64,000 nucleotides of DNA from Rhynchopus sp. YZ270_cl-10 (taxonomy: Eukaryota > Euglenozoa > Diplonemea > Diplonemida > Diplonemidae). The translations under genes were made by a program, and so were the position numbers. The notes beneath the pieces were generated by a model. The model saw only the letters and a program-made list of their open reading frames with translations. It ran no database searches and was not told the DNA's origin. The stretch covers positions 124,001 through 188,000 of the forward strand of contig OZ037874.1 of NCBI GenBank assembly GCA_964035575.1, written 5' to 3'. Shown piece by piece: positions 33,141-64,000 of this stretch. Numbering within the stretch: position 1 is the first letter of the stretch; the number at the start of each line of letters is the position of its first letter.

Positions 33141-34493
33141 TATACATAGCGCTCCAATTAGAGTGTTAGGGTATAATTAGAGTCTGGGATTTTGGGTCAA
33201 GTCAGTTAGAGTCCAGTTAGAGTATAATTAGAGTCGCTTTTCTTCAATTAGACTATAATTAGAGCGCAGTTAGAGCATAATTAGACTCTAACTACACTCT
33301 AATTATAGTCTAATTAGAGTAAAACAACAGGCTTCTTGTAGGTGCAAACGCCTTAAGGAACTGGTTCCCCTAAGGTTCCTCTGTAGGACCCAGGTGTCCA
33401 GGTGCCCACATAGCTGAGAATAAGACTTGGGGACCCGGGACCCGGTTATTCTCAGCCGGACTGGGACACAACTATGTGAAGGCGCTGTGGGTCCGCCTGA
33501 AAGCGGGTCGGGGACCCGGTCGCGGGAGGGTGGGGGCCTAGTCCAAGTCCTACTGTACCTAGTACCCGGGACTCGGGACCCGGCTTATTCTCAGCTATGG
33601 GTACCCGGACCCGCAGTGGCACATGCCCTCAAGTGTGAGTGACCCACACATGAGGGAATGCGACACCGCAAAAACTCTTCGTGCACCTTCGGGTGCAATG
33701 CCGCAGACAGGCCAAACAGCGTTGGACTCAGAGGAATTCCTGCTGTGCAGGTAACAAACATGAGAACCAACTCCCAGTAACAAGGGGCGCCTTTTGGCGG
33801 GCGTTATTGAGGATGTTTGGGGTGCAAAGTTTTCCACAATTTTGATGCGCGGGTACAGAAGTGTTGTCTTGTTCTTTCATCTCTAGGAATGTAAATGTCA
33901 ATCGAGTTTAACTACCACTAAGGGGTCGAAGGGGATAATCCCAGTATCAAAGGTTGTGTCGACGGGAAATCTATGAGTATACGTTCATTTCATCCGCAGA
34001 AATAACTACTTATGAACCCAGGAGAGATCCAAGCCTCGCGCTAAACCACCACCCGCGATTGACTTAGATGTTATAACAAAGAGAATTCATAACAAACAAC
34101 ACCCTACCCCATGCACACTAAAGTGCCATGCTTCAAGTGATCATGCCCTGGGCCAAAATTCCTGTGCTAAAAAGGCAACAAGACCAGTGTGAATTGTGCA
34201 CTGGTTTTCTGGGGGAACAAACAATATTTTCTTGTATCTAGTCCTCTGCAAGCAGAAAACAGACGTTCTGGATTACAAAATCGAATTTCTTGCACTGGCT
34301 ATGCTCCCTGGGTTTATGGCTATAGCATTGGTTGATGTGCCCCTCTTATTGACCCTATTATAAGACTCTAATTAGAGTCTAATTAGAGTCCAGTTAGAGT
34401 ATTAGAGTTCAGTTAGAGTTTTAAAGACTCTAATTATACTCTAACTGCCGACTCTAATTATCTAGTTGGAGTCTAATTAGAGCGCTATGTATA
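33141..34493. mobile_element. 1.35-kb TIR element, CTAATTAG type, with 6-bp target duplication
   Basis: The ends are inverted: TATACATAGCGCTCCAATTA on the left, TATACATAGCGCTCTAATTA reversed on the right. ATACAA flanks both sides (33135-33140, 34494-34499). Inside each end (33150-33325, 34360-34485) is an irregular cluster of TAATTAGAGT units in both orientations. The core (about 33598-34350) is shared with copies at 51488, 58600 and 63366. No protein of recognisable family is encoded. Confidence 0.88.
33598..34350 (+). repeat. Shared core, copy 1
   Basis: Conserved blocks include AGACAGGCCAAACAGCGTTG, ATGAGAACCAACTCCCA, TCCTCTGCAAGCAGAAAACA and TCGAATTTCTTGCACTGGCT. The same block order holds in the other three copies. 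Confidence 0.85.
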
Positions 34494-35791
34494 ATACAAG
34501 GTTTTTTTGTAAAATTTGACACTAACTTTGGGGGAGGGAGAAAGAAAGAGAAATGGTAAAAAAGAAGCTGTAACAAAATAGACAAAAGAGAAACATACAT
34601 TTGTTTTCAACAAATTTTTGTTTTTTTCACTGGCGCAAACAGCGAAGGCCCAGTGTATTGACACCCGACACATTGTGCATCATCCCCTCCCCCCCCATAC
34701 CCCACACTATCAGTCAGCAAAATGACAACCCAAATATGTCATATGACAATCCTCGTAGAACGACAACCTAACAACCTGACATATGCCACTGACCACCTTA
34801 TTTGCCTACGAAATGCCTTTTGCGGCAGTAATTTTTTTGGGGTTGTTAATCATGACAACCTCAGGAGTTGCCACAATTATGATATGTCCTTTGCGTTGTC
34901 ATTCAGGGTTGTCATTTTTTTTTCCACCACCGTGCAACCAGGGTCCTCAGCCTGCACCCCTCTCTGGGAATTTTGGGGGTGCAAAAATTTTTCTGTACAA
35001 AACCCTTCAGAAAAGTCTATTCCGAGCTTTCTCCCCACACAAGCGGTCGTCACGCGCGCTTCGCGCGCGCTCCTCCCTGACAAAGTTGGAAGAGGTGTGA
35101 AAATTCACGGGAAAATGGGGAAACCAGGGCCTGACGCTATTTTTTTGGGTTTTTGTGAAATCGTGGGAGGCTCAAAAAAATTTTCCTGCGCCCGTTTTTT
35201 TATTTCACATTGGGGTGTCTTTCCGCGAGCGAAGCGAGCGGAAAAAAATTTTAAGGTGTACCTCCGCGAGCGCAGCGAGCGGAAAATTACACTCAGTACC
35301 CATGCATAAAACGAAATACACTTCCACATAATCACTTCGCTTGCTTTCCTGGACTGCTAAAGGTGGCGACAATCGCAGGGAGCATCCCTGGCACCACTTT
35401 CACACATTGTGAGTGCGACAGCCACCTAGTGGTGCTTGGCTGTGTCTGTTGTGGTGCTGACGAAAAGCCAGAGAATCCCTGCTGAAGCCTGAAATCCCCC
35501 CTCAAAAATTTTTTTCGCCCCAAAAAAACTTTTTTTTTTTTTTGGGGGGGTGCAAAAATATTTTTTGCACCCCCCGACTTTTCTTTTTTTTTTTTTTTGG
35601 GTGCAAAAAAATTTTTTTGCACCCCCTTGAGGACCCTGCGTGCAACCCCCCTCACCTATCATACCCTGAGAAATACACCCCCACCCCCTTATCCCCCCCC
35701 CCTCCGAGACGTTGTGAACGTCCAAAAAAATCCTCACCGTTCCAAAGGCGTATGAGAAGAACCCCATGGTCTCACCATTCAAAACGCACCG
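34494..35791. other. Gene-free stretch
   Basis: A possible ~200-bp MITE (34722-34917; ATGACAACCC at one end, GGGTTGTCAT at the other), hairpins of the type GCGAGCGAAGCGAGCG (35226, 35265) and T/A runs with GGGTGCAAAAA units (35540-35625). Confidence 0.5.
34722..34917. mobile_element. Possible short MITE
   Basis: Ten-base inverted ends ATGACAACCC/GGGTTGTCAT and further inverted GTCATATGAC and TTGTCATT bits inside. No target duplication found. Confidence 0.4.
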
Positions 35792-38615
35792 TTAGATTTC
35801 TTGAAAGCACTGCTGCATATCAAAGGGGACCGCACTGTTATATGCACTGTAACTACTGTAGCGTTGTGGCGACCCTGGGCTGGACCGGGGGCTGAGGGAT
35901 GGGAGGGAAGGGGAGGCTCCGCGGCGGTGGAGCGCTGCCTGGCGTTCGTGCTGGCGGGCAGCGGCTTGGGCTGCTGGGGGGAGTGTGGCGTGGTAGCTTC
36001 GCCGTGGGCCTCGTTGGTACACATCCCTCATATGTGGCGATTCGTAATAGCTGTGCGTGGGGCGGGGTGGGGTGGCAGGGGCGGCGGCAGGGGCAGGGGC
36101 AGCGTGTGTGTGGTGTGCTGCTGCTGCAGTCGCTGCAGCTGCTGCTGCCGCGTGGCTCGCAGTCGTGGACACAGCGGAGGCAGAGGTGTGCCGCCGTACC
36201 GTGCCCTGCCACGCCCGCACCACATCGTTCCACTCTGCCAGCGTCGGCCGCAACGCCGTGCTGTCCCCATCCCTCTGCACTGCCAGCTCGCCCCCCGCAA
36301 ACCTATGCCCGCATAGGAACGTCCAGAACGCATCCCCGGCCTTGAACTGAATGTCACTCACATTGTTCCGCAGACGAACGTGGTGTGGGTGTGCGGTATG
36401 CCAGGCGTCGACGAAGGCGCCGAGCCACTCCTCTGAAACAGAGATCTCGTCCTGCTTCAGGGCGAGGGTGACCTGTGGAAGGGTGGATTGGTGGTGGAGA
36501 CGGATTAAAAGTGGGGTGATTCATTGTGATCAAGGTGGCTAAGCACAGAGAGGCTTAGGGTCATCTTATAAACTTTTCTTTGTTTTGTATGATGCAGGAT
36601 CTATGTACTATTGTAGTCCTATTCCAAGGTGGGAAATCCTTTTAAGGATGTAGAGCAGTGTTGTTATGTGATTTGAGTGAAGTGAGGTGGAGCAGGGTGA
36701 AATCAGAAGGGGGAGGGGAAAGAGGGAGGAGGGAGAGAGAGGCAAAGACAAAACACACCATATTACCAACCCGTGCGTCGCTGTTCGCGGCCACCTCAAT
36801 CATGAGGTTGCGCCAGAACCCCTCGTCGCCAGGGATCGCGTACGACTCCTTCTTGGGTGCATTGCGTGCACGCTCACGACTCACCTCCTGAAGGGGGGAT
36901 GGGATGGGGGGTTGTTTGTTGAAGTTAGCGTTTTTTCTTTTTGCAAAATTCTTAATATAGACACGGTGGCCTGTACGAACCTAGGGTACGTACCCCCCCA
37001 AACCCGCGGGGTACCCCAAATAGGGTTCATCATGCCACCGTGGACACTATCAAAATAATCCTGAAATGGTCACCGCTCTCTGACATACCAGCATGTGTCT
37101 GTGCACTGAGTTCGTGGACGGCGAGAAGAACTCCATCGAAGGGAGAAGCGTGTTGATCTCCAATGCGGCTGTGCTTTGGCGTGATGACACCTGCGACGGA
37201 GGGTCTGACGGGGCAGGCGGCGGTGGGCTGTGCTGCTTGCCGTCCTGTGTGGAGGCATGCTGCGGGGGGTTGGGGGCGGCCGTGTCGGGGTTGGCTGCCC
37301 ACCCACCATCGGGCACTTCAGGCGCGTCGTCGCTGATGACCAGGTACAGATCTGCGGGGTGCGATTGACGTGCCTCTGCGACAGCTCGGCGGAGGTCTTG
37401 CACGCTGAAGATCTGCAGAGGAAACGTTAAAGAAAAGGTGTGGTAAGAAGTCTTTTTTAGACAACATAACGTCGCCAGTTTTATAATGAGTTGCTTTTGC
37501 GGTGAGCAAAACAATTTCTCCATAGGAGTATAGCAAGGACGTCTTGCAACTATCTTCTCCCCTCAGGCAGGACAGAGAGCGTTGGCGACTTCCTTTTGCT
37601 CTGTTACGTCGAGGAAGCAGAGGGGGGTGAAGAGCTGTCGTCCAGCACTCAAGGATGTCACCGGCCTTGTTTGTCCAATGGCAAGCCCATGCGGCATGAC
37701 GACAACGTCCCGTATAGCAGGCGTCAAGGTGCAACGTCGGGTCGCTCGCTACTGGCCAGCTAGGAAATATTTTGACCCCAGTGATAAAGTCGTGGGTGAT
37801 CACGCAGGGGGAAGAGTTTTTGGACTACACTGTCAGCAGCAGACAGAAGAAAGCGGACGACAAGAAGCTTTTGGTTTGTACAGTGTCCGCCGGGCAGTTG
37901 GAAAAAACACTCACTACCTTCATTTGCGGATTAAAGCTGCGCAGGTTCCTAACCGGCAAGATAAAGGGCTGCCTTGAACACAGAGGAGGTTTTAGCACAG
38001 AAGAAAAAAGTTGGACCTCCTTCTTCAGAGAGGGAGGCCTACCGTGTCTTCTGTGTTGAAGTTCCAAGAAAAAGTGCCTGATTCCTGTCCCGACACTGTA
38101 TCTTTCGCAGGTTAGGGAAGCAGCCGAATTGTTGGCTGAAGTGCTCACCAAACAGTGAGATACCGTCCGCAGCATGTGGGAATATCTGCAAAAGTGGCTG
38201 GAGCTGCACCACCTTCTTGACGCAGAGCAGCTACTTGAGGCTGTGAAGGGGGTACTGTGGAGGTTGAGGCTAACACTCGTGGACCTTTGCAGGGCTGCAA
38301 CTCGTCAGAGGGTGTGGGCAATCCTTGCAGCTGTCAGGACATTATACGGGCACCCCCATGTGTCTGAACACCTCCCATCCCAGACTTTTGGTTTGTAAAA
38401 AAGGAGGCAGAAGTGTCACATACCTCGACAGCGTTGATGCGGACGAGATACCCCGGCGCCACCTCTGCACGCGCAGCAGTGCTGTTCGCCTCGCTCCCAC
38501 GGATGTAGATCGCCCCGCCACGCACCTCTGAGTACTGCAGACCCACGTTCTCCGACGCCTTGTCCACGCGCAGGCGGTACTCACGCTCGCGTGAGGGCGC
38601 TGCACCGTCGCCCAT
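35792..38615 (-). CDS. PDZ-domain protein
   Basis: Four exons: 38615-38424, 37412-37089, 36887-36771 and 36472-35792, 437 residues. Residues ~12-95, split over exons 1 and 2, fit a PDZ domain: YRLRVDKASENVGLQY, a short loop, AEVAPGYLVRINAVEIFSVQDLRRAV. PDZ domains bind C-terminal peptides of membrane proteins. Then a Pro/Ser/His-rich linker, a folded-looking piece (FWRNLMIEVAANSDARVTLALKQDEISVSEEWLGAFVDAW, then DAFWTFLCGHRF), and an Ala/His/Pro-rich, likely disordered tail. Three introns: two GTATGT donors; the third is unclear (GTTGGT keeps the frame, GTAATA does not). Intron 1 is 1 kb and GC-rich. Confidence 0.75.
36533..36576 (-). repeat. Dispersed repeat R1 (PDZ gene intron)
   Basis: Reverse copy: AGTTTATAAGATGACCCTAA, then GCCTCTCTGTGCTTAGCCAC. 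Confidence 0.75.
37550..38335. other. GC-rich intronic insert, possibly decayed coding DNA
   Basis: This part of PDZ intron 1 is less A/T-rich than other introns and has overlapping open stretches on both strands. A minus-strand piece (37560-37803) includes DPTLHLDACYTGRCRHAAW. I do not recognise it with confidence; a fossil of a mobile-element gene is possible. Confidence 0.35.
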
Positions 38616-43341: not shown

Positions 43342-43347
43342 GTATTA

Positions 43348-49047: not shown

Positions 49048-49054
49048 TTCTGTA

Positions 49055-49593
49055 CATAGGTTTCGAACGCGCGTTCGCGTTTTTAGGGCGTTTTCGAGTG
49101 CGCGTTTGAAAAACGAAAAAAAAAAACGCGCGTTCGGAAAAAACGAGAAAAAAAACGCGCGTTCGGGAAAAGCGAAAAAAAAACGCGCGTTCGGAAAAAA
49201 CGAAAAAAAAAACGCGCGTTTGAAAAACGAAAAAAAACGCGCGTTCGGAAAAAACGAGAAAAAAAACGCGCGTTTGAAAAACGGAAAAAAAAAACGGGCG
49301 TTCGAAAAAGTGGAAGCCTCATGTTTACGTGGGGAGGTTTTTCGAACGCGCGTTCGAAAAGTGGTTTTTTCGAACGCGCGTCCAGTTTTTCAAACGCGTG
49401 TTCGAAAAAACCACTTTTTCGAACGCGCGTTTGAAAAAAAAAAAAAAAACGCCCTTTTTTTTTTACGCGCGTCCAGCTTTTCGAACGCGCGTTTTTTTTT
49501 TTTTTGCGCGTTTTTTTTTTTTTTTTCATGTGCGCGTTTTCCGATTTTGGATTTGCGCGTTTTCGATTTTCGAACGCGCGTTCGAAACCTATG
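49055..49593. mobile_element. 539-bp element made almost wholly of GAACGCGCGTTC palindromes, 7-bp target duplication
   Basis: Ends CATAGGTTTCGAACGCGCG, inverted at the right as CGCGTTCGAAACCTATG. TTCTGTA flanks both sides (49048-49054, 49594-49600). The body is some 20 units of (G/T)AACGCGCGTT separated by A or T runs; the A runs fill the left half and T runs the right, so the whole can fold back. Confidence 0.88.
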
Positions 49594-49733
49594 TTCTGTA
49601 CCCCCTTCTGGAGGGGGTTCCAGGGTGGGGTCCCGGTTCCAAAGTCAAACAAAAAAATAGTGGTGGAAATTTGGGAAAAATGTATTAATTTAGATGCCCC
49701 CAAGGGAAAATCCCGACCTCTGGTGCTGTACTG

Positions 49734-49839
49734 CTACTGTGTACTGTGTACTGTGTACTGTGTACTGTGTACTGTGTACTGTGTACTGTGTACTGTGTAC
49801 TGTGTACTGTGTACTGTGTACTGTGTACTGTGTACTGTG
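49734..49839 (+). repeat. Tandem array, TACTGTG x ~15
   Basis: Perfect 7-bp repeats. Confidence 0.95.
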
Positions 49840-49862
49840 CCGAAATTGACCAAAAACGAGAA

Positions 49863-50225
49863 CTGTACTGTACTGTACTGTACTGTACTGTACTGTACTG
49901 TACTGTACTGTACTGTACTGTACTGTACTGTACTGTACTGTACTGTACTGTACTGTACTGTACTGTACTGTACTGTACTGTACTGTACTGTACTGTACTG
50001 TACTGTACTGTACTGTACTGTACTGTACTGTACTGTACTGTACTGTACTGTACTGTACTGTACTGTACTGTACTGTACTGTACTGTACCGTACTGTACTG
50101 TACTGTACTGTACTGTACTGTACTGTACTGTACTGTACTGTACTGTACTGTACTGTACTGTACTGTACTGTACTGTACTGTACTGTACTGTACTGTACTG
50201 TACTGTACTGTACTGTACTGTACTG
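49863..50225 (+). repeat. Tandem array, TACTG x ~72
   Basis: Perfect 5-bp repeats apart from one TACCG near 50087. Frames read through it on both strands are artefacts. Confidence 0.97.
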
Positions 50226-50239
50226 AACTCCCAATCCCC

Positions 50240-50425
50240 TGTGTATACTGTGTATACTGTGTATACTGTGTATACTGTGTATACTGTGTATACTGTGTAT
50301 ACTGTGTATACTGTGTATACTGTGTATACTGTGTATACTGTGTATACTGTGTATACTGTGTATACTGTGTATACTGTGTATACTGTGTATACTGTGTCTA
50401 CTGTGTATACTGTGTATACTGTGCA
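50240..50425 (+). repeat. Tandem array, TGTGTATAC x ~20
   Basis: Nine-bp unit with one C substitution near 50398. Confidence 0.95.
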
Positions 50426-50454
50426 GTGTAAGAAAATTGATCACGTATGTACTC

Positions 50455-50520: not shown

Positions 50521-50734
50521 GGTGTTTAAAAACTTCACCAACGAGAAAAAGGCTCACGCCGGTGGGAAAAAAAGTGTCTCACCTCCCAACGCCCGCCAAC
50601 GCCCCCCAACGCCTCCCAACACCTCCCAACGCCTCCCAACACCTCCCAACACCTCCCAACACCTCCCAACACCCAGCTAATTCAGGTGGTTTTGTTTTCC
50701 ACACGGTGCAGTCTGTCCTGGAAATGTCGGACCC

Positions 50735-50872
50735 TTTTGTCGGAGTCCGAGGGGGTCCGACAGTCGGACCCCCTGAGTCCGACAGTCGGACTCAGGGGTC
50801 CGACTGTCGGACTCACAGTCGGACCCCTGAGTCCGACTGCCGGACCCTGGGGTCCGACAGGCACACCCAGGT
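50735..50872. repeat. GTCCGAC/GTCGGAC palindrome cluster (left of core copy 2)
   Basis: About ten GTCCGAC or GTCGGAC motifs arranged head to head, with CCCCTGAGTCCGACAGTCGG shared in reverse with the cluster at 55798-55930. Confidence 0.8.
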
Positions 50873-51072
50873 GCCCAGGTACCCAGGTACCCAGGTACCC
50901 AGGTACCCAGGTACCCAGGTACCCAGGTACCCAGGTACCCAGGTACCCAGGTACCCAGGTACCCAGGTACCCAGGTACCCAGGTACCCAGGTACCCAGGT
51001 ACCCAGGTACCCAGGTACCCAGGTACCCAGGTACCCAGGTACCCAGGTACCCAGGTACCCAGGTACCCAGGT
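50873..51072 (+). repeat. Tandem array, AGGTACCC x ~24
   Basis: Eight-bp repeats containing the palindrome GGTACC, ending in AGGTCCAGG variants. Confidence 0.95.
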
Positions 51073-51487
51073 CCAGGTCCAGGAACAGGTACCCAGGAAC
51101 AGGAAAAAAGTCGTGAAAGAGCAACCACAGCTCCACATGACAAACACAAAAGTGTCCAGTCACGTGGGGCATTCATGCACTGAGGAGATAATGATCCAAC
51201 AATTTACAAGAAAGATTACTTAACCTACTGCTGGAAATTGCCAGGTCGTAGTAACACACAAAGTGTGCCTCCGTTCGGGAAGACCGGATATTCTAGAGAC
51301 CAGAAAGGCCTCAAGAATATCTTCCGGTAGTCAAGGTAGAACCGAGTGAACGGCCCAAGACCCCCGTGGAGAAGTTAAATGTTGTAATGCTATCAGGTAG
51401 AAACTGCGAACACTGTCTTACCCTCCTCAATGCATGGTGGTTGATGTCTTCCACAACAAATTTCCTGTACCCAGGTACCCAAATTCC

Positions 51488-52300
51488 CAGACCCACGCAG
51501 TGGCACATGACCGCCAAGTGTGAGTGACCCACACATGAGGGAATGCGACACTACGCAAAATTTACCACCAGACCCTGTCTTCGTGCACCTGAAGTACAAC
51601 GCCGCAGACAGGCCAAACATGCGTTGGACTCAGAGGAATGCCCGCTGTGCAGGTATCAAACATGAGAACCAACTCCCAGCAACAAGGGGCGCCTTTTGGC
51701 GGGCGTTGTTGAGGGTGTTTGGGGTGCAAAGTTTTCCACAATTTTGATGCGCGGGTACAGAAGTGTTGTCTTGTTCTTTCATCTCTAGGAATGTAAATGT
51801 CAATCGCGTTTAACTACCACGAGGGCTTGTTTAGTGAACCCACGAGGGGTCGAAGGGGGTTGGTTATCCCGTATCTATCAAAGGTTGTGTCGACCAGGCG
51901 AATCCACTATGTTACGCTGTACGTTGTTAAATCCGAAGAAATAACGCTTTAGCAGCCGCAGGAAGTTTGTTAAAAAGAGTGCCTCACGCTACACAAACCA
52001 CCACCCGCGATTGACTTAGATGTTATAACAAAGAGAATTCAGAACAAAACAACACCCTGCCCCATACACACTAAATTGTCATGCTTCAAGAGCATGCCTG
52101 GGCCAAAATTACTGTGACAAAAAGGCAACAAGACCACCCACAAGGAGTGTGAAATGTGCACTGGTTTTCTGGGGGAACGCAATATTTTCTTGTGCCTCGT
52201 CCTCCGCAAGCAGAGGACAGACTTTCCGGAAGGTTTCCAAAGTCGAATTTCTTGCACTAGCTATGCTCCCTGGGTTAAATGGCAATAGCAGTGACTGACA
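51488..52300 (+). repeat. Shared core, copy 2
   Basis: Over 700 bp align with 33598-34350, including AGTGTGAGTGACCCACACAT, AGACAGGCCAAACATGCGTT and GCAAGCAGAGGACAGACTTT. Flanked on the left by the AGGTACCC array and GTCCGAC cluster; the right boundary is unresolved. Confidence 0.82.
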
Positions 52301-53063
52301 AAGTGTACCCATCCCCCTTCCACCCCAGATCTTAGTCCGCAAACTCAGAATGGATTGATGCGGGTGATACTCTTTGGATTTTGAGTTGCTGAATGTCGGA
52401 GACGCGGCGAGGCTTCTCATCACAATCGCAGATGCAGTTCAGATTTCACGATCCTGTGATGAGTGTAAATGTGGAGTGTGATTAATGAATGAAATGTATG
52501 GTGTAGAAACGCAGTTATCGGGAAAGGTGGGTTAATGTGGTAAAAAAAGTGGATAAAACTCGTGTAGTTTTGTGAATTCCCACAAAGGTGGGTGATAATG
52601 TGCCCTTTTGTCACTCAATTGTAACCGAGAATGTATGGGAGAATGAAATTTTATTTCCCAACCCAACAACAACGATAAAGCGTGAAGACAATAAATGAAA
52701 TCAAAGCGGAATAAATTTGAGGTTTTGTGAGGCACTCAACGAGTGTGCCGGCTCTGTGGCGTCACGGAGCCACCAACACTCCCCAGTCATTTTTCCTGCG
52801 CTTCCAGGAAAACTCGCGTTTGCGACCAGGCCGAAACGAAAAAATTTAATTCACAGCAAACAGGTGTGAGGGAGAAGAAAAGAAAGTGAACAAAAACGAA
52901 AAAACAATGTTTTTCTGAAATGTGATGTTGTTGGGGTGGGGAGAATAAAACAGTTCCAGAAAAGCTCCTGCGTCGGTTTTCTTTTGGTTAAAAAAATCAC
53001 TCAGTAAAAAAAAGAACTTTTTCATCACTCCCCTCAAACACTGCCAAAACGAAGAAGGACAGG
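52301..53063. other. Gene-free stretch
   Basis: Unassigned. A minus-strand frame around 52430-52310 (MRSLAASPTFSNSKSKEYHP) is open but unsupported. Confidence 0.45.
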
Positions 53064-53222
53064 ATGTATGACACTTACGGATACCAAGTCTCAGCGGGTA
53101 TGAGAAGCAAGGAGGTGTACAAGAAGAAATGGGACGAGTTCTTGCGGTTTTCAAACCTCGAGCGACTTGGTCCGCTTTGTATTGACACGGACCTCGACAC
53201 CCCGACATGTACTGGCTTTTGA
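53064..53222 (+). CDS. Small ORF, recombinase-like N-terminal motif
   Basis: Fifty-two codons with EVYKKKWDEFLRFSNL, which resembles the motif VQYRKTWDDFLRFNRL in the convergent frame at 53724-53951. Such Y-x5-W-x-F-L-x-F patterns occur in the N-terminal domain of tyrosine recombinases, but no catalytic domain is present. It may be a remnant of a mobile element gene. Only the mutual similarity supports it. Confidence 0.35.
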   Translation: MYDTYGYQVSAGMRSKEVYKKKWDEFLRFSNLERLGPLCIDTDLDTPTCTGF

Positions 53223-53448
53223 GAAAGGCAGTCGGTTCCTCGGTAGATTGCGTGCAAGTGAGGGAATATCCATCTGCTTGGAAGACGTCAAAACACCAAA
53301 CATAGTATTTCGCGACATAAAGGGCAGATCAAATACTCACTGCCTTACATTCTCGGTTACAATTGAGTGACACAAAGGGCATATAATCTGCAAAATTACA
53401 CGAGTTTTATTTCACTGAGTTAGATAATTATTATCTCATGAAATAAAG

Positions 53449-53635
53449 TGAACATTATTTCACGAGGTGGTGGGTGACTCAAACTGGGGCTCAACTTCAC
53501 GAAGCGAGTGGAGTTCAGCATTTTGATTTCATGAGTGAAGTGAGTGTAATCATAAAAGTGATGTCACGAGCGATAGCGAGTGGGTATCACGTATTCCAGT
53601 TTGTGAATCACCCATCAGTTAAATAATGTTCACTT
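53449..53635. mobile_element. Foldback MITE, GTGAACATTATTT ends
   Basis: GTGAACATTATTTCACGAGG on the left and, reversed, GTGAACATTATTTAACTGAT on the right, followed by GGGTGAYTCAMAAMTGG. Inner GAAGCGAGTGG and ATTTCATGAG hairpins. Confidence 0.65.
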
Positions 53636-53723
53636 TAGTTTTCGATACGTAATTTTATACCACGCGTGAAAAACGTAAACAGGTGAAAAAGTGAGTGAAA
53701 TAAGATTCGTTTTATTTCACGTT

Positions 53724-53951
53724 TTATTTCACGCAAATCGTGAAGGATTGGGTGGGGGAGTGAAATAAAAGATCACGGAGTGATCTGAAGGACACGACGT
53801 GTTCTTCCCTGGGCTCGTTCGCTCCTGAAAGTCTGTTGAAACGGAGGAAATCGTCCCATGTTTTCCTGTACTGCACACCACTGTTCATGTCGTCGAACAA
53901 GTTGTCATATGCATCCTCCATCTCCGCAAACTTGCGCGTGGGTTTAGGCAT
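53724..53951 (-). CDS. Small ORF, recombinase-like N-terminal motif
   Basis: Seventy-five codons from ATG 53951 (MPKPTRKFAEMEDAYDNLFDD). The centre, GVQYRKTWDDFLRFNRLSG, is similar to the ORF at 53064. It ends among TTATTTCAC repeats. It is either the start of a broken mobile-element gene or a small independent gene; no family assignment is safe. Confidence 0.35.
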   Translation of the reverse strand: MPKPTRKFAEMEDAYDNLFDDMNSGVQYRKTWDDFLRFNRLSGANEPREEHVVSFRSLRDLLFHSPTQSFTICVK

Positions 53952-54108
53952 GTGTGTAAGAGGCAATAAATAATCTGTAATTTGAAGTGTGGTGGTGTGA
54001 GGGGTGGAGCGTGGGCTCAACGTTCCACTGTTTACACCTATAAATACGTTTTTCACTTGTGGAATAAAATTACATATTGAGTGAAATAAGAACATTTTCT
54101 TGCACTTG

Positions 54109-54196
54109 CCACTAAAAAGGCACCCTCGTGACTCTCACTCTTATTCCCCTCGCTTCGCTCGGGAAATAACGCACTCGGGCACCTTTTTAGTGGCGC
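54109..54196. mobile_element. Short palindromic element
   Basis: GCCACTAAAAAGGCACC on the left, inverted as GGCACCTTTTTAGTGGC on the right, around a GCTTCGCTCGGG centre. Confidence 0.6.
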
Positions 54197-54229
54197 GTGA
54201 AATAAAATAGTTCTTATTTCACTCGAATA

Positions 54230-54542
54230 AATAGTTATTATCTCACGGGCAATAATGTTGTGCTGCGTTTTCGAAATTCCTACAGTATATTTGACAAATG
54301 ATGTATGACCACCTAGTACGGGGCGTCAAGGTTGGGTATGGTGAACAGTTCCTCGAAGTCCTATGACTGCAACCCTTTTGGTTGCATGCGCAGATCTCCT
54401 CCATATTGCTTTTGCGCCTACTCTCGGCATGGGTTTTGTTTTGTTCTTTGTGTGCGGAGATAATGTCTACTGTATTTTGTGTAATCTCCAGGAAGGAATT
54501 TCGAAAACGCGGCTAAACATTATTACACAAGTGAGATAAAAA
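54230..54542. mobile_element. MITE with ~45-bp inverted ends
   Basis: Left TTATTATCTCACGGGCAATA and TGCGTTTTCGAAATTCCT; right, reversed, TTTTATCTCACTTGTGTAAT and CGCGTTTTCGAAATTCCT. No coding potential. Exact edges are uncertain because the surroundings are full of similar TTATTTCAC motifs. Confidence 0.65.
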
Positions 54543-54593
54543 ATTGTTGGCTCTCTCTCTGTTGTTTTGGCTTTTGTTTTTTTGTCTATTTGT

Positions 54594-54768
54594 GACGAGG
54601 CCTGGAACACCTGAACATAGGCATATCTGGAAAATCTATCTGAGGTGTGGCAAATTAAATATATTCAAGCGTGTGGTTGAGGCGCACCTAAACATAAGTA
54701 AGTGCCAAGTCTGAACATTTATTTTCAGAGGCCTTAGTGAGGCTGTTTCGGCCTCGTTGCATTGTATC
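54594..54768. mobile_element. Decayed short relative of the 43348 element
   Basis: The right end GGCCTCGTTGCATTGTAT and the inner AAACATAAGTAAGTGCC/TGAGGCGCACCT echo the 43348-44429 element; the left end is reduced to GACGAGGCCTGGAACACCTG. Confidence 0.6.
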
Positions 54769-54896
54769 ATGATGTAATAAGGTTCACATACTTTCGATTC
54801 AAAGAAGAGAAAGCACACAAGAAAATAAAATGCTGCAAACCACTGGGTGTGTTGTTTGCATCTACACAAGTAACTGAAAGTTAAACATTTACATAC

Positions 54897-56208
54897 CTTG
54901 TCTTCCCCGTAGCCTCCGCCTTCGCTGCTGTCAAGCTGCCTTCTCTTGGTACCCAGTACCCAGTACCCAGTACCCAGTACCCAGTACCCAGTACCCAGTA
55001 CCCAGTACCCAGTACCCAGTACCCAGTACCCAGTACCCAGTACCCAGTACCCAGTACCCAGTACCCAGTACCCAGTACCCAGTACCCAGTACCCAGTACC
55101 CAGTACCCAGTACCCAGTACCCAGTACCCAGTACCCAGTACCCAGTACCCAGTACCCAGTACCCAGTACCCAGTACCCAGTACCCAGTACCCAGTACCCA
55201 GTACCCAGTACCCAGTACCCAGTACCCAGTACCCAGTACCCAGTACCCAGTACCCAGTACCCAGTACCCAGTACCCAGTACCCAGTACCCAGTACCCAGT
55301 ACCCAGTACCCAGTACCCAGTACCCAGTACCCAGTACCCAGTACCCAGTACCCAGTACCCAGTACCCAGTACCCAGTACCCAGTACCCAGTACCCAGTAC
55401 CCAAATTGGTCGCCCCCTGGTTGGTCGAGAACCTAAAAATGCAAAAAAACGCAAAATTCATGTGTTTTGACCATGTCTGGGTACACCAAATACACACCTC
55501 TGAACAAGCCTATACCCAGTAGTAGGCAACAAGCGCTATTTTTTGACCAAGAAAAAAAAAATCCCCCAAAAATTGGGTGTAGTAGGTCACAAAATGGCCC
55601 AAAAAATTCAAAGAAAACCTCAGATTGACCAAACAATGAAAAAAATTTTCAAGTCAAATTTTCAGCCAAAATACGGCTATTTTGGTAAAACCATGTGTAC
55701 TGTAGTGGCTATACAAGGCGATTTTCGGCCAAAAAAATTTTTTTGGCCAAAAAAAAAAATTTTTTTTTCGGCCCAAAAAAAAAAAAATTTTTTTTTTTGG
55801 GTCCGACTGTCGGACCCCAGAGTCCGACAGTCGGACTCCAGAGTCCGTCTGTCGGACTCCAGAGTCCGACAGACGGACCCCTGAGTCCGTCTGTCGGACT
55901 CAGGGGGTCCGACTGTCGGACTCAGGGGGTAAGTCCGTTATTTACACACTCCAAGCACGACAGACCGCACCGTGCAAAAAAACAAAAAAAAAAAAAAAAA
56001 ACGCCCAAAATACCTCTACCAGGCGGATTTCTGATTTGGACCGCTGCCGTCGCTGTTGCAACTCCTCAGTGGAAACCATGAACGGGTCCTGTTTGCATTC
56101 TGCGCTTGCCGTGTTGACGTGCGGCTCAGTGGTCTTCTTCACAGGCTTCTCCGGGCGCCCCTCCGCAGCGGGCACATCCTTGCTGTGCACGCTGCTGCCG
56201 CACCCCAT
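54897..56208 (-). CDS. Lipid-anchored MGCGSS protein (3' end unresolved)
   Basis: Exon 1 (56208-56014, 65 codons, donor GTATTT) begins MGCGSSVHSK: Gly2 with Ser6 fits N-myristoylation and Cys3 fits palmitoylation, a pair often found on flagellar or plasma-membrane proteins. The rest is charged (TEELQQRRQRSKSEIRLVE). Exon 2 (54935-54897, 13 codons, LDSSEGGGYGEDK, donor GTATGT) is in phase. Further exons to the left were not found, so the CDS is incomplete. The intron contains a GTCCGAC cluster and a 450-bp AGTACCC array that ends 14 bases from the 3' splice site. The next upstream in-frame start would be GTG at 56241, so ATG 56208 was chosen. Confidence 0.6.
54951..55404 (+). repeat. Tandem array, AGTACCC x ~65 (in intron)
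   Basis: Perfect 7-bp repeats abutting the acceptor of exon 2 of the MGCGSS gene. On the gene's strand the unit is GGGTACT. Confidence 0.97.
55798..55930. repeat. GTCCGAC/GTCGGAC palindrome cluster
   Basis: Nine or so GTCCGACTGTCGGAC-type units, including GTCCGTCTGTCGGAC variants; same motif as 50735-50872. Confidence 0.85.
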
Positions 56209-58065: not shown

Positions 58066-58312
58066 TTTTTAGGGAACGGAGCATGTGTACGGTTCCTGGA
58101 AGCTCCAAGAAAAGGGAGTCGGCGGGCTTCATGGGAAGTTGCCTTTCCTAAACGTACACACAACTGGCAAAAAAAGGGGAGGTGTCGTCACCCACCTATA
58201 TCATTGAAATACCATTGTTTACCAAAATGGTATACTAATACTGTTGCCCCTGTATTTTTGTTTTTGAAAACTTGGTTGTATTAGTGTAGCCACCCTAGAG
58301 TGTGCTCCACTA
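58066..58312 (+). repeat. R4 copy followed by R3 copy
   Basis: R4 at 58066-58250 (GGAAGCTCCAAGAAAAGGGA to ACCAAAATGGTATACT) and R3 at 58262-58312 (ACTTGGTTGTATTAGTGTAG, intact at the site split in 43342). Confidence 0.75.
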
Positions 58313-58507
58313 TACTTGTTTATACATGTTTTTTTTTTGTTTGGCTCGCAAAGATATGGGTCGATTTCAAAACCCCCCCCCCCCCCCCCCCCCCCCTACA
58401 CGACGGACTAGTTATGACCATGACAGGTGATTTTACTAGTAAAATGACAGGTGAAAATTTTTGACAGGTGGTACCTGTCATTTTGACAGGTACCACCTGT
58501 CAAAATA

Positions 58508-58600
58508 CAGGCACCAGGTACCCAGGTACCCAGGTACCCAGGTACCCAGGTACCCAGGTACCCAGGTACCCAGGTACCCAGGTACCCAGGTACCCCCAAT
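58508..58600 (+). repeat. Tandem array, AGGTACCC x ~11
   Basis: Same unit as 50873-51072. Confidence 0.95.
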
Positions 58601-59537
58601 GACATAACGAAGTATCGCTTGAAAGTACCGTTCAATAACCTTTCTTGGGTGTGCATGAAGTAGGACACAAGGTATATCAAACGATAAATCAATCAGATAA
58701 ACGTTACATCATCGGAAAATTGTTGGCACCGCCGCCCTGTCTTCGTATTTATTACGTCGACAGGCCAAACAGCGTTGGGCTCAGAAGAAGCAGTGCAAAA
58801 CACTGGGGATCAACATGAGAACCAACTCCCAACAACACAGGCTACCGAAGTAGCAGGTGGGGTGTTGCGGGTGTTTGGGGTGAAAGAAAATCGATTTTGG
58901 TAAGTTACAGCAGAAAATTCTTAAGTTTGCACTAGTCGAGAGAGGCTTACCCGCTGCAGTGAAGCAGTGCACCCATTTAAGGATGGAGAAGCGTGACACG
59001 CACATACAAGTATGTACGTTACTTCAACAAAGGCTGAATTCTGGTAATTCTAAGGGATGTGAATTCAGCCACCACGCAGGTAGTGTTTTAAGGTTCCTAG
59101 CTTTGTTCTGCACAGCGGACTTATGACACAAAGGAGTTGCCCCCGCTCTCTTTCGCGCAAACTTAAGAAAATTCTGAAGTAACTACAACCTGGCGTGCGG
59201 GTACAGATGCATTGCTTTGTTCTTTCCTCAAAGTCATGTGTGATCTCTCGGGTCTGTACTAAAGTCAGTGTTTAGATAAGCATCCACTTGACTCGTTCTA
59301 ACAACCGTTGAAATCTAGAACAAAACAATACACTGCCCCTTCTCACACCAAGCCGCCATGCTTCAAGAGCATGCCCTGGGCAAAAATTACTGTGACAAAA
59401 ACTGGTTTCTGGGGAACGCAATATTTTCTTGTGTCTAGTCCTCCGCAAGCAGAGGACAGACTTTCCGGATCCCGAAGTCGAATTTCTTGCACTAGCTATG
59501 CTCCCTGGGTTAATGGCTATAGCAGTGACTGACTAAG
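58600..59537 (+). repeat. Shared core, copy 3
   Basis: Its first ~330 bp (CAATGACATAACGAAGTATC to TTACAGCAGAAAATTCTTAA) are nearly identical to copy 4; the rest aligns with copies 1 and 2 (CAAGCAGAGGACAGACTTTC). Confidence 0.85.
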
Positions 59538-59609
59538 AGTTTCATAATAATTAGGGTGGTCTATGGGGTGGGTTAATGGAAAAGTTGGTTTATAAACCCG
59601 ACTTTTTCA

Positions 59610-60043
59610 TTAGGGTGGTCTCGGTCGCCACCTGATTTTGAAATATTTGCACCAGCTCGTCGGCACTGCTTCGCTGTCACAATGAAGGGTCGTCGGTTCG
59701 GGTACCTGTTAAGAGAAATTGAGGACAAAAGTGACATTTAGAACAAAAAGAAAAAGTTGACTTGAAATACAAAACCCTCTCGTGAACAGTGTACCTTGGT
59801 ACATGACCGGCTGTACCGGGGTGGACACCCAACAAGAGATAGATAGAGGAGCACAAATCCTGAGTCGCTAATTTGGGCGGGAAAAAATAGCCTCAATTTA
59901 CATCCGGAGGCGAGACGTACATCCAGAGCGGGACAATGTCGAAAAGGGGGAGCGGGGGTGGTGAATACCGGGGGTTAAAAACATACCTCGCACTCGGTCC
60001 ACTCTCCAGGTACGAGAACATCATTGGACATACAAACCCACCA
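59610..60043 (-). CDS. Possible 3' exons of an unidentified gene inside the TIR element
   Basis: An exon-like piece 60043-59987 (WWVCMSNDVLVPGEWTECE, acceptor GACGCAG, donor GTATGT) joins in phase to 59705-59610 (acceptor TTAACAG; VPEPTTLHCDSEAVPTSWCKYF, stop TAA). The splice signals are of the host type. Cys/Trp spacing hints at a small zinc-binding fold, but no family is recognised. The S/A-rich stretch at 60960-60630 may hold further exons; two minus frames are open there and I cannot choose. It could be captured host sequence. Confidence 0.3.
59755..59835 (+). repeat. Dispersed repeat R2
   Basis: TTGACTTGAAATACAAAACC, GAACAGTGTACCTTGGTACA, CGGGGTGGACACCCAAC. Confidence 0.65.
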
Positions 60044-61530
60044 CTGCGTCAGTAAATAGCTATTTCCCTCCCTCCCGCCAGGTTCGAGGGAGCACTTGAG
60101 GGAGGACAAAAAATGCCTATGGTTCGCGCAGGTGGTTTTCTTACGGGAAAAATCTGGGGGGCCGGGGCCGTGTTGCTGAGAATAACTCGCACTCTGCCCG
60201 GTGTGAACAAGCCCACACCAAAGCAATGGCTGTACAAGTCGATTTTTGCAGGGGTGGGCGGGCACCCGGGCTTTTTCCATTTTTTTGGATCGGAAAAAAA
60301 TTAGGGTACATTGTAAAAAATGCAGCGGGATTTTTGATGAAGAATAGTGATTTTGTGCATAAAAGGTAAATACGTCCCGAGCCCGGCGCGCGTAGCGCGC
60401 CGGAAGTTCTGGGCCTCCGGCGGAGAAACTAGAATTCCTGGCCTAAAAAGGGTCCGAGCTTTCGCACGGTGGTGGGTGGGGTGGATCTTTATGATAATAT
60501 TATTCAAAGAGATGCAGAATCTCTGCGGACACCTCCTCACTGAGGTACCCTCGGGATGGTTCTTGGCATGCAAAAGTGCAGCAAGGGGTTCGTCGACAAC
60601 TTGTGAGCGGAGACGTGTCTTCACCAACTTCAATCACGAAAATGCCCGCTCATCTTCGCAAGACGAAACAGGGGGTCAGAAGGCGAGTCGCACAAACTCG
60701 CATTATCCCGTACTCCTTCTTCAGTTGCGTCTTCATCTCCTCTCTGCTTGTCCCCGGCTTCACCGGATCCACCAGGAGCTTCTCCCCACTCCTTGTCATC
60801 TCCGAGGTCGGGTTGCAACGGAAGGAAATAGTCGGCAGATGGCTCGGGCGAGGAGGCTGGGAGGAAGATGAAAGAGGTGGGCGACCCTTCGGGCCCCAGC
60901 CCACCTCTTCAATTTTTTTATTTGTACCTTTTTTTTTTTTTGAAGAATTCTTCATCGGATTCTTCAGCGCGGAAAAACTGATTATGGCTTAGTACCGCAC
61001 TCCCGTGTATTTGGTGCACCCAGATTAAAACACCCGATTTTTGCGTTTTTTTGCATTTTTTCGCCCAGTATTGAGGACATGTGGGGGTGAGGACCACCGA
61101 GGGCAATTTTGTGAATTTTTTTGGGGTCAAAAATTGACTTGTCTTTCGTAAATCCCACGAAAAATCGTGGTGCGCAAAATCGCGTTTTAGACCCCCATAG
61201 ATGCTCAAAAGTGTCAAATTTTGCTTTTAATGGCCTCAAATCGTCGAAATTCGCCCTAAAAGGGGGCAAAAAAAAAAATTCGAGAGTCCCTTTCCCTGGG
61301 AGGCAATAGCCACCGGCAAAAACACCTGTCATATGACAGGTGGTACCTGTCATTTTGACAGGTACCACCTGTCATTTGACAGGTGCACCTGTCAAAATGA
61401 CAGGTGCACCTGTCATTTTACAGGTACCACCTGTCATATGACTAGTAATATTCAATTATCACCTGTCATATTTATAACTAGTAACACCACCTGTCATATC
61501 ACCTGTCATGGCCATAACTAGTCCGTCGTG

Positions 61531-62449
61531 TAGGCATAGGTGCCCGGCGAGTTAAAACAACTCGGCAACTCGCCCAAATTCGGCCAACAACTCGCCCATT
61601 TTTTTTGGGCGAGTTGTTTTTTTTTGGGATTTTTTATGGCTACAAAAACACAGGTACACAGGTACACAGGTACACAGGTACACAGGTACACAGGTACACA
61701 GGTACACAGGTACACAGGTACACAGGTACACAGGTACACAGGTACACAGGTACACAGGTACACAGGTACACAGGTACACAGGTACACCACATCACGTTTT
61801 ATCTTGTGCATCCCACGCTTCACAGCTGGTCTGTGAATGTGCGCTTTGTGTGGTTTTGTGTATCCCAAAGGAAGTCGTCGCCCAAAGCATTTTGACTAAA
61901 CGTGTGAACGTTGTGAACCTGGAATCGATAGCAGACAGGAAAAGAGGATGGGCAGGCAGCGCCTGCCCGACCTGTGGGAAGTGAATCAGTGATTGCCTGA
62001 CAGATGTCTGGGGAACCGTGTGTTCTGTGTGGGTATCCATGTACGGAGTATATCCCATTCCCCCCAGCAATTACCAAAAACCGTGAGTGTGCACGGTGGC
62101 CCATGGACCACCACGACCTAGTTACCACCTATGACTAGTCATATGACAAGGTGCATGTAATGAGTGGCGTTTGGCCTTAGCCCTGGTTGTTTTTCTTGAG
62201 ATTATGTGTTGTACCAACGTTACATGTGTGTAACCTTACAACGTCACCTCCCATCCCTGTATGTTTTTGCCTGTAAAAATGGGCGAGTTGTGGCCGAGTT
62301 GTGGCCGAGTTGTGCCGAGTATAGGGCGAGTTGTGCCGAGTATAGGGCGAGTTGTGGCCGAGTTGTCCGAGTTTTTGGGCGAGTTGTTAGGTGAAATCGT
62401 AAAGTTCCGACAACTCGCCCAAAAACGACTCGGCGGGCACCTATGCCTA
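61531..62449. mobile_element. 0.92-kb TIR element, GGCGAGTTG type
   Basis: Ends TAGGCATAGGTGCCCG, inverted at the right (CGGGCACCTATGCCTA). GGCGAGTTG/CAACTCGCC units cluster inside both ends (61550-61620; 62280-62430), and an AGGTACAC array (61652-61786) follows the left cluster. The ends overlap the right end of the 3.1-kb element by TAGG. Unlike that element it lacks the shared core; its interior (61790-62260) is unassigned. Confidence 0.8.
61652..61786 (+). repeat. Tandem array, AGGTACAC x ~17
   Basis: Eight-bp repeats, a one-base variant of the AGGTACCC unit. Confidence 0.95.
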
Positions 62450-63185
62450 GGGGGGTCCGTCCGGCCGTTTTTGCTGTCCAAAACCGCTTTTTTTGAAGAA
62501 AACCCCCGAAAAAACACTCAAAACCACCCAAAACCCCCCCGAAACCACCCGAAAACCACCCAAAATTACGAAAAATGCACTTCTGAGCACCAATTTTTAT
62601 TTTTTTCTGACTTTTTGGGCTTTAGAGTGCGAAAATGTCAAAAAGGGGGGTATACGGGTAGTTTAAGCGTTGCAGACAATCCCCAAAAATACACCCAAGG
62701 ACCCCAAAAAGCTGCAAAAACCACACATTTCCACCTCGGGACCCCAGCGGAGGTGGGCTGAGGTGGTTTTTGGGTGTTTTGAATTTACATCAGTTTTTTT
62801 TGATGAAAAAATCGTGTTTTCTAACCGTTTTTAGCCGGGAGTAAGTGTTGCAAAGTGTTGCATAGCCGGCTCATACCCGTTGCATGCCATTTCATGGCCC
62901 AAAAAAGCCCGAGTGTCCCAAATGCTATTTTTCACCCCACATGAGGTCTGGGAGTCATTTCCTGGGGTATTTTGACACTATGACGACTGTCATATTACTT
63001 TTTTTGGGGTTTTCAGGACGGGCTATGTTTGAAGGAGGGGCTATGTTTAAGCTTTCGAGGCACACACGCACACTGAAAAATGCATCTGGGACCCACACAG
63101 GACCCCCAAAAAGCTGTAAAACTATATATTACCACCTCGGGAACCCAGAGGAGGTGGACCGAGGTGTTTTTCGGGTCTTTACACG
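62450..63185. other. Gene-free stretch
   Basis: Two related blocks (62690-62775 and 63100-63182) share CCCCAAAAAGCTG, CCACCTCGGG and GAGGTGG. Otherwise unassigned. Confidence 0.55.
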
Positions 63186-63187
63186 GA

Positions 63188-63355
63188 TGCTGCCAGATCT
63201 GGCCAGATCTCCAGATCTGGGCCGCCCAGATCTGGCCAGATCTGGGAAAATTTTTTTTTTTTTTGAAAAAAAAATTTTTCCCAGACGTCCCAGATCTGGC
63301 CAGATCTGGCCAGATCTGGCCACATCTGGGAGATCTGGGACGTCTGGGAAAATTT
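63188..63355. repeat. CCAGATCTGG palindrome cluster (left of core copy 4)
   Basis: About ten AGATCTGG/CCAGATCT units with CCAGACGTCC/GGACGTCTGG variants and A/T runs that form a long hairpin (63245-63290). Confidence 0.85.
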
Positions 63356-63365
63356 TTTTTTCCAG

Positions 63366-64000
63366 GTACCCCCAATGACATAACGAAGTATCGCTTGAAG
63401 TACCGTTCAATATACGTTGCTCGTGTGTGCAAATTACGAAGTAGGACACACAAGGTATATCAAACGATAAATCAATCAGATAAACGTTACATCATTGGAA
63501 AATTGTTGGCACCGCCGCCCTGTCTTCGTATTTATTACGTCGACAGGCCAAACAGCGTTGGGCTCAGAAGAAGCAGTGCAAAACACTGGGGATCAACATG
63601 AGAACCAACTCCCAACAACACAGGCTACCGAAGTAGCAGGTGGGGTGTTGCGGGTGTTTGGGGTGAAAGAAAATCGATTTTGGTAAGTTACAGCAGAAAA
63701 TTCTTAAGTTTGCACAATTGAGAAGGGTGTTACCACTGCCTAATATTATTCGTACATGTGAACCGGTAAGGTCGAGAAGGGTGGACACGGCATACAAGTA
63801 CAAGTACAAGTAAGACGTACCTTCTACAAAGGCTGAATTCGCAATTCTTAAGGGATTGAATTCAGCCCCCACGTGGTGTTTTTGAGAAAATCATTCCATG
63901 GTATACAACTATGGTTCCCGAAGAATGATTCGCCCCTCCTCGTTCATGCAAACTTAAGAAAATTCTGAAGTAACTACAACCTGGCGTGCGGGTACAGATG
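63366..64000 (+). repeat. Shared core, copy 4 (runs off the window)
   Basis: Nearly identical to 58590-58920 at the start; diverges after 63720, then rejoins at AACTTAAGAAAATTCTGAAG. A single CCAGGTACCC precedes it, a relic of the array seen in copies 2 and 3. Confidence 0.85.

What the first reader, a model, noticed from the sequence alone, without database searches (positions are those of the whole stretch)
33141..64000. Element family with a common core but a different palindromic end motif in every copy
Four copies of an ~0.6-0.9 kb core (33598, 51488, 58600, 63366) are each bordered by clusters of a short self-complementary motif, and the motif differs each time: CTAATTAG(AGT), GTCCGAC/GTCGGAC, GACAGGT/ACCTGTC, CCAGATCTGG. 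In copies 2 and 3 a GGTACC-type array stands between cluster and core; copy 4 has a one-unit relic and copy 1 a degenerate form. Copies 1 and 3 have matching inverted ends. Conserved inside with swapped palindromic ends is not a standard transposon pattern; it may mean end-motif replacement, each motif being a binding site of a different protein.
Basis: partly seen in the sequence, partly recalled or inferred. Interest (0 to 1): 0.87.

Follow-up and report, generated by a model that had tools for sequence, protein, structure and literature searches.

The report
Jumping genes sharing one swappable core
In the genome of a single-celled organism, probably a marine diplonemid, families of jumping DNA carry the same conserved non-coding core between completely different ends that insert into DNA in at least two different ways, so the core appears to have been passed from one kind of jumping gene to another.

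Summary
A core 18-mer occurs 1,185 times exactly in the 152-Mb host genome (reversed control 0). The four window copies belong to different families of terminal-inverted-repeat DNA transposons. Ends are constant within a family: both ends in 30 of 30 fetched family-1 copies, left ends in 30 of 30 of family 2. Between families, 13 end sequences gave no cross-family BLAST hit, while cores are 82-97% identical over their alignable parts. Eight further copies, picked for diversity, added six end motifs.

The ends also integrate differently: 6-bp target duplications in family 1 (29 of 30) and 2-bp in families 2 and 3 (17 of 18; 8 of 11). Family 3 has 8.4-8.8-kb members with an intact transposase-like ORF (C2H2 fingers; weak RAG1-like fold in two low-confidence models); the core lies beside it in both copies that could be checked.

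Most cassettes begin at GGTACC-unit arrays, which suggests exchange by recombination there (inferred). The core is non-coding and its first domain can fold well, but transcription, strand and function are untested. I call it a new variant of TIR transposon with a shuffled cassette.

The parts
33141..34493 (+). Element 1 (family 1), 1353 bp: TIR TATACATAGCGCTC/GAGCGCTATGTATA, CTAATTAG-type clusters at both ends, core subfamily A
   Evidence: 30 of 30 fetched copies (this one included) have the same ends; 29 of 30 flanked by an exact 6-bp duplication; TIR 180+/179- in the genome, control 0
33604..34327 (+). core of element 1
   Evidence: BLAST to element 2 core, 80.9% over 812 columns
50702..55974 (+). 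Element 2 (family 2), 5273 bp: TIR CACGGTGCAGTCTGTC/GACAGACCGCACCGTG, core subfamily B
   Evidence: 30 of 30 left ends (this one included) identical with different flanks; 2-bp duplication in 17 of 18 other copies; TIR 94+/97-, control 0
50730..50864 (.). left GTCCGAC/GTCGGAC cluster of element 2
   Evidence: 10 matches against a shuffle maximum of 3
50865..51097 (+). (CCCAGGTA)n array, left border of the cassette
   Evidence: TRF, 29.9 copies
51098..52340 (+). subfamily B cassette: about 380-bp 5' piece and core (51486-52290)
   Evidence: L063 97.8% over 1,288 bp; L067 98.9% over 638 bp and 95.8% over 782 bp; both have other ends
54949..55403 (+). (GTACCCA)n array, right border of the B cassette
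   Evidence: TRF, 65 copies; L067 similarity stops at its first units; L063 matches into it until the fetched DNA ends
55801..55924 (.). right GTCCGAC cluster of element 2
   Evidence: 12 matches against a shuffle maximum of 3
58399..61530 (+). Element 3 (family 3, probable deletion derivative), 3132 bp: TIR CACGACGGACTAG, core subfamily C
   Evidence: 18 long matches at 95-100%, this one included and two of them starting at position 120, among the 40 candidates scored; 2-bp duplication in 8 of 11 including this one
58420..58512 (.). left GACAGGT/ACCTGTC cluster
   Evidence: 6 matches against a shuffle maximum of 1
58514..58595 (+). (CCAGGTAC)n array
   Evidence: TRF, 10.2 copies
58586..59543 (+). 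core of element 3
61323..61520 (.). right GACAGGT/ACCTGTC cluster
   Evidence: 13 matches against a shuffle maximum of 1
63182..64000 (+). Element 4, left part only: CACGGATG start (inferred), CCAGATCTGG cluster 63192-63350, one GGTACC unit, core (C) from 63362
   Evidence: 25 motif matches against a shuffle maximum of 3; same start and cluster in L066
51575..51726 (.). core domain 1, three-way junction that can fold on either strand
   Evidence: A4: 98.5% of cells paired against 30-45% when slid

Best explanation
The features are DNA transposons, mostly non-autonomous, with terminal inverted repeats. Each family has its own terminal repeat and its own subterminal cluster of a short palindrome, most likely the binding array of that family's transposase or accessory protein. 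The families share a conserved non-coding cassette (core 0.7-0.95 kb, longer with flanks in subfamily B), bordered on the left, and in subfamily B also on the right, by arrays of GGTACC-containing units. The cassette has been reassorted among end types; recombination or template switching inside the GGTACC arrays is the simplest route. One end type (family 3) belongs to an 8.4-8.8-kb autonomous element that encodes a DDE-like transposase with C2H2 fingers and carries the cassette next to its left end. Shown: shared cassette, unrelated ends, family-constant ends, target duplications of 2 and 6 bp, an intact ORF between family-3 ends, most junctions at the arrays. Inferred: that the ORF is a DDE transposase, exchange by recombination in the arrays, protein binding to the clusters, and that the cassette is kept because it works as a structured RNA (or structured DNA) element for whatever transposon carries it.
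For: 1,185 exact core 18-mers, control 0. Family-constant ends: 30 of 30 and 30 of 30 left ends. 6-bp duplications 29 of 30, mismatched-pair control 0 of 870; 2-bp duplications 17 of 18 (control 57 of 306) and 8 of 11 (control 15 of 110). No BLAST hit at E<=0.01 between ends of different families, with cores at 82-97% over 230-950 aligned bases. B cassettes: L063/e2 97.8% over 1,288 bp, L067/e2 98.9% and 95.8% over 638 and 782 bp, under different ends; similarity starts inside the left array, and L067/e2 stops at the first units of the right array. L061 joins a C-type core to a B-type right flank. ORF inside 6 of 6 family-3 end pairs of 8.4-8.8 kb among the listed places; core in 2 of 2 that could be checked. 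Domain 1: 98.5% of cells paired against 30-45% slid; cells with a change on both sides 13, against 5.8 in shuffles.
Against: No recombination event was caught in the act; junctions at arrays fit other routes too, and L061 has no array unit. 24 of 34 pairs of domain 1 never vary; the number of pairs with a change on both sides (3) and of further pair types is not above the shuffles (302 and 499 of 500), and the variation lies mostly between two core lineages. A consensus fold of the whole core is weak (about 0.3 of the single-sequence energy on either strand). The strand is undecided (3 G-U against 4 C-A cells). No transcript data. The cluster-binding protein is unidentified and family 1's transposase was not found. 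The second transposase subfamily (45-46% identity) has no core 18-mer within 25 kb in 3 of the 4 copies that could be checked, and in the fourth the nearest core belongs to a neighbouring family-3 element, so the core is not needed by every relative.
Confidence: 0.5

Rival explanations
1. No exchange: all families descend from one element, and the end motifs changed fast by concerted evolution together with the zinc-finger transposase, while the inside stayed conserved.
For: Families 2 and 3 and several other left ends share a CAC start, and families 2 and 3 a 2-bp duplication; the family-3 protein has C2H2 fingers, a domain class with evolvable specificity (general knowledge). L062 and element 3 share 140 bp beside different right clusters (93.6%).
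Against: Family 1 has another terminal repeat and 6-bp duplications. L067 ends in GGGGAAACG while its cassette is 98.9% and 95.8% identical to element 2's. L061 is a mosaic.
Confidence: 0.2
2. The cassette is itself a mobile element (for example a retroposon with a GGTACC-repeat tail) that inserts into GGTACC arrays of other transposons.
For: Same borders at GGTACC units on both sides in element 2 and L067; a neighbouring element at 61533-62455 has a GGTAC array but no recognisable core.
Against: In the loci read it lies in the same orientation next to the left cluster, and it is a fixed part of the 30 fetched copies each of families 1 and 2. No tRNA-like or Rfam-known part was found. No copy was seen outside a transposon, but only 12 diverse loci and two families of the 1,185 were read.
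Confidence: 0.2
3. The core is a functionless internal remnant of the autonomous element that deletion derivatives happen to keep, as Ds elements keep parts of Ac.
For: The autonomous family-3 element has the core near its left end, and the 3.1-kb copies look like deletion derivatives of it.
Against: Three diverged core subfamilies keep the same invariant blocks and pairing, and the same core lies under ends with a different cutting geometry.
Confidence: 0.15
4. Clusters and cores are chance neighbours or nested insertions.
For: Nesting does occur: L112 holds a LINE-type ORF in a family-2 copy and L114 is a composite.
Against: Target duplications directly outside the inverted repeats in 29 of 30 and 17 of 18 copies; 26 of 30 family-1 copies are exactly 1353 bp long, the other four 1351-1357.
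Confidence: 0.02

Closest known systems
CACTA (EnSpm / CMC) transposons
   Same: 5'-CAC ends, short target duplication, subterminal regions of closely spaced direct and inverted short repeats, a transposase plus a second ORF of unknown function (passage read in PMC8978399)
   Different: 2-bp instead of the 3-bp duplication given there; no Transposase_21 match found (uninformative: controls silent too); a non-coding cassette shared with families of other end types
Transib / RAG / Chapaev transposases
   Same: CAC start; in two low-confidence models of two relatives the best VIA-align rows are RAG1 chains (rows 1-17, seven of the first eight)
   Different: 2-bp duplications instead of the 5 bp given as typical of Transibs (PMC4411706, passages); C-terminal C2H2 fingers; RAG1 is not among the rows shown by the PDB sequence searches
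MITEs and Ds-like deletion derivatives
   Same: short, high-copy, nearly identical, non-coding, own inverted repeats and target duplications
   Different: MITE families are as a rule unrelated inside when their ends are unrelated (general knowledge); here the inside is conserved and the ends are not
IS3EU-like elements with 6-bp target duplications (recalled, from no call)
   Same: family 1 has 6-bp duplications and a 5'-TAT start
   Different: no transposase of family 1 was found, so this is a lead only

Membership tests
CACTA/CMC (families 2 and 3) | terminal inverted repeats starting CAC | tested here: met
   CACGGTGC, CACGACGG
CACTA/CMC (families 2 and 3) | 2-3 bp target duplication | tested here: met
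   2 bp in 17 of 18 and 8 of 11; the paper read gives 3 bp for CACTA; 2 bp for some CMC groups is recalled
CACTA/CMC (families 2 and 3) | subterminal arrays of a short motif in both orientations | tested here: met
CACTA/CMC (families 2 and 3) | CMC-type transposase domain | tested here: inconclusive
   PF02992 gave no hit, but nothing rang in 14 controls either; Pfam finds only zinc fingers and weak unrelated rows in the family-3 ORF and its relatives
Transib/RAG | 5-bp target duplication | tested here: not met
   2 bp; 5 bp typical per PMC4411706
Transib/RAG | RAG1-like catalytic core | tested here: inconclusive
CACTA/CMC (family 1) | CAC ends and 2-3 bp duplication | tested here: not met
   TATACATAG ends and 6 bp in 29 of 30
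SINE/retroposon (the cassette) | tRNA, 5S or other known RNA head, known tail | tested here: inconclusive
   ARAGORN 0, Rfam gathering 0, relaxed Rfam on two cores only array and weak matches

The most novel reading that the evidence does not exclude
The core is a structured RNA module that serves DNA transposons of mechanistically different kinds (2-bp and 6-bp cutters). It has become a selfish, exchangeable part that recombines between families through GGTACC arrays and has reached more than a thousand copies. That would be a parasite-like RNA cassette living on DNA transposons, or an RNA component that helps their transposition or expression.
Probability: 0.22. Interest if true: 0.9.

Novelty: new variant of a known kind. 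Interest (0 to 1): 0.62.

Why it matters
DNA transposons are normally classified by their ends and transposase on the assumption that ends and inside descend together. Here a conserved inside travels under ten different end motifs (in 12 loci; only the left end was read in five of the eight sampled ones) and two cutting geometries, so class II elements can be modular in a way that confuses classification and points to lateral exchange of a useful or selfish part. A conserved structured module in cut-and-paste elements has no obvious job, and its high copy number in a protist genome makes it testable. The 621-residue protein with a tentative RAG1-like fold may also place that lineage in Euglenozoa.

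Tried and rejected
Rfam at gathering on the window and at relaxed thresholds on two cores: no family; the relaxed hits lie mostly on the GGTACC array or are weak. tRNA-derived SINE: ARAGORN 0 in the window. Viral origin: two IMG/VR contigs hold the 18-mer, but inside one and the same stretch of degenerate repeats with no longer similarity to the cores, so chance. Coding core: open frames of 60-90 codons do overlap domain 1 on both strands, and some peptides look alike because the DNA is conserved; but no frame shows an excess of synonymous changes between the main subfamilies (for example e1/e2 best frame 4 synonymous to 5 nonsynonymous, e1/e3 5 to 19; in e2/L068 two frames reach 5 to 3 and 5 to 4, each with a stop), so I read it as non-coding. 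The large family-1 copy as an autonomous element: L114 is a composite of core pieces without a recognisable transposase. The long family-2 copy on C47: the extra DNA holds a reverse-transcriptase ORF (PF00078), a nested insertion. hAT origin of element 3 from a short dimerisation-like fragment: Pfam finds nothing and 8-bp duplications are absent (0 of 11). Strand of the RNA: undecided; both strands fold, domain 3 slightly better in reverse. PF02992 search is uninformative.

Selection effects: L001-L060 are the best-scoring matches and so are biased to one family each; L002 and L031 are the window's own copies. L061-L068 are 8 places that I picked for diverse spacing from the first 100 listed of 1,185, not a random sample. 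The right end was not read in L061 and L063-L066. In one search, domain 3 used 8 of 12 sequences because the others were cut or failed the trimming pattern. One search counted 10 distinct rows of 12. End sequences for one search were cut by eye.

Full report
WHAT IS THERE. The window is G000:C42:124001-188000 of an unnamed 152-Mb, 126-contig genome. A protein at 9481-11157 (-) has as its only informatively named relative one of Diplonema papillatum (39%); an unnamed ENA protein is at 49%. I therefore take the host as a euglenozoan, probably a diplonemid, on one protein only. The four cores and their clusters are real, and the clusters exceed all shuffles.

FAMILIES, NOT ONE ELEMENT. Searches of the genome with the core of copy 2 and with the whole of copy 1 scored 40 places each out of more than 2,000 candidates; all 40 match the query over nearly its full length at an identity shown as 100%. 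In family 1, 30 of 30 fetched copies end in TATACATAGCGCTC, and 29 of 30 have an exact 6-bp duplication (mismatched-pair control 0 of 870). In family 2, 30 of 30 left ends begin CACGGTGCAGTCTGTC with different flanks; right flanks of 18 copies give a 2-bp duplication in 17 (control 57 of 306), and the window copy fits too (CA/CA). In family 3, 8 of 11 copies including the window's show 2 bp (control 15 of 110). Genome counts of the exact terminal motifs are 180+/179-, 94+/97- and 64+/68-, with controls of 0, so roughly 180, 95 and 66 elements. Together these are under a third of the 1,185 exact core 18-mers; the rest must have diverged ends or belong to other families.

MORE END TYPES. Eight further copies, picked for diversity from the first 100 listed places, carried six new motifs: ACGATCGT with TTTTACG (L061), CGTAATTACG/CGTCATGACG (L062), AGGGCAAGTCTGA (L063), GGGGTACCCC with CATG (L064), TACGTGTTATCGC (L065) and CGACAATGTGGATT (L067). 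L066 repeats copy 4's left end and L068 copy 1's ends. Both ends were read in L062, L067 and L068, only the left end in the other five. Thirteen end sequences from ten loci gave no cross-family hit at E<=0.01 with word size 7. The cores of the same loci were 81.7-97.1% identical, over 230-950 aligned bases; between C and the other subfamilies only about a third aligns.

WHAT THE CASSETTE IS. Cores fall into A (element 1, L068), B (element 2, L063, L067) and C (elements 3, 4, L061, L062, L064-L066). In B, L063 matches element 2 at 97.8% over 1,288 bp, and L067 matches it at 98.9% over 638 and 95.8% over 782 bp, although the ends are unrelated and L067 ends in GGGGAAACG. Similarity begins inside the (CCCAGGTA)n array. 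On the right, L067 and element 2 agree up to the first units of the (GTACCCA)n array; L063 matches into that array until its fetched DNA ends. In C, similarity to element 3 starts inside the array (L062), within 7 bp of its left edge (L064, L065) or at the last unit (L066); L061 has no unit. Right borders in C vary. L061 joins a C core to a B right flank (86.9% over 313 columns); L062 and element 3 share 140 bp (93.6%) beside different right clusters. This points to exchange at the arrays; the event itself is inferred.

STRUCTURE. Open frames of 60-90 codons overlap the core, but no frame has a consistent excess of synonymous changes. Domain 1 (about 150 nt, 12 sequences, 10 distinct) fits a three-way junction with 98.5% of cells paired, against 30-45% when slid. 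24 of 34 pairs never vary. Three pairs change on both sides, which as a count is not above the shuffles (302 of 500), nor are further pair types (499 of 500), while cells changed on both sides (13 against 5.8) and the covariation score exceed all 500. So the fold is plausible, the covariation modest, and the strand open (3 G-U against 4 C-A cells; domain 3 slightly better in reverse). A consensus fold of the whole core is weak. Rfam knows nothing like it.

COMPARISON. Families 2 and 3 work like CACTA elements; passages of PMC8978399 read give ends named for the CACTA motif, subterminal repeats and a 3-bp duplication. They fail the 5-bp duplication of Transib (PMC4411706, passages). Family 1 is of another kind. 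For the Diplonema genome, passages of PMC10161547 mention TATE-, MULE- and Helitron-like ORFs and dispersed repeats without obvious origin. PMC12621601 suggests MITE-like elements as a source of diplonemid introns (passages). PMC8101967 reports the first DNA transposons of kinetoplastids (listing and passages). Searches for a shared cassette or structured RNA in such elements (listings only, apart from PMC8978399) and for transposases in Diplonema (no paper) listed nothing that describes this; subscription papers are not covered.

VERDICT. Its most likely meaning is modular DNA transposons that exchange a conserved non-coding cassette. Shown: sharing, unrelated ends, two integration geometries, an intact ORF in an autonomous-size partner. 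Inferred: the exchange route, the enzyme type, what binds the clusters, and what the cassette does.

Noticed in passing
window 49054-49594: Another inverted-repeat element (24-bp perfect inverted ends, ACATAGGTTTCGAACGCGCGTTCG) packed with the palindrome CGAACGCGCGTTCG and without a recognisable core.
   Followed up: partly
window 61533-62455: Element with TAGGCATAGGTGCCC ends, CGAGTTG clusters and an (ACACAGGT)17 array but no recognisable core; abuts element 3. Two of ten other family-3 copies also have a TAGGCATA sequence close to their right end.
   Followed up: partly
L113:1938-2455 vs 2691-3182 and 4048-4446 vs 5716-6114: In the autonomous-size family-3 element parts of both ORFs are repeated in inverted orientation (about 95% and 99.7%), so transcripts could form long hairpins.
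   Followed up: partly
L112: A 761-codon reverse-transcriptase ORF (PF00078) inserted in a family-2 copy on C47.
   Followed up: partly
window 60540-60680 (-): Short stretch that resembles a hAT C-terminal dimerisation segment by eye, with a stop; Pfam does not confirm it.
   Followed up: partly
window 53083-53220 (+) and 53830-53950 (-): Two similar coding-like fragments (...W-D-E/D-F-L-R-F...) inside element 2, next to an inverted pair at 52594-53388.
   Followed up: no
G000:C50:1118202-1152213: Three family-3 end pairs follow each other with only tens of bases between them.
   Followed up: no
G000:C1:899432, C20:1044370, C37:1216065: Very short family-2 end pairs (about 120-145 bp), both ends of the left type.
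   Followed up: no
family-2 insertion sites: Many of the 18 family-2 copies compared lie close to long T or A runs, suggesting a target preference; no control was made.
   Followed up: no
window 1101-6300: Two stretches with ankyrin-like ORFs in direct duplication at about 91% identity.
   Followed up: no
window 49727-50423: Three adjacent microsatellites (TGTACTG, ACTGT, CTGTGTATA; the middle one 74 units) just left of element 2; related arrays recur in composite L114.
   Followed up: no
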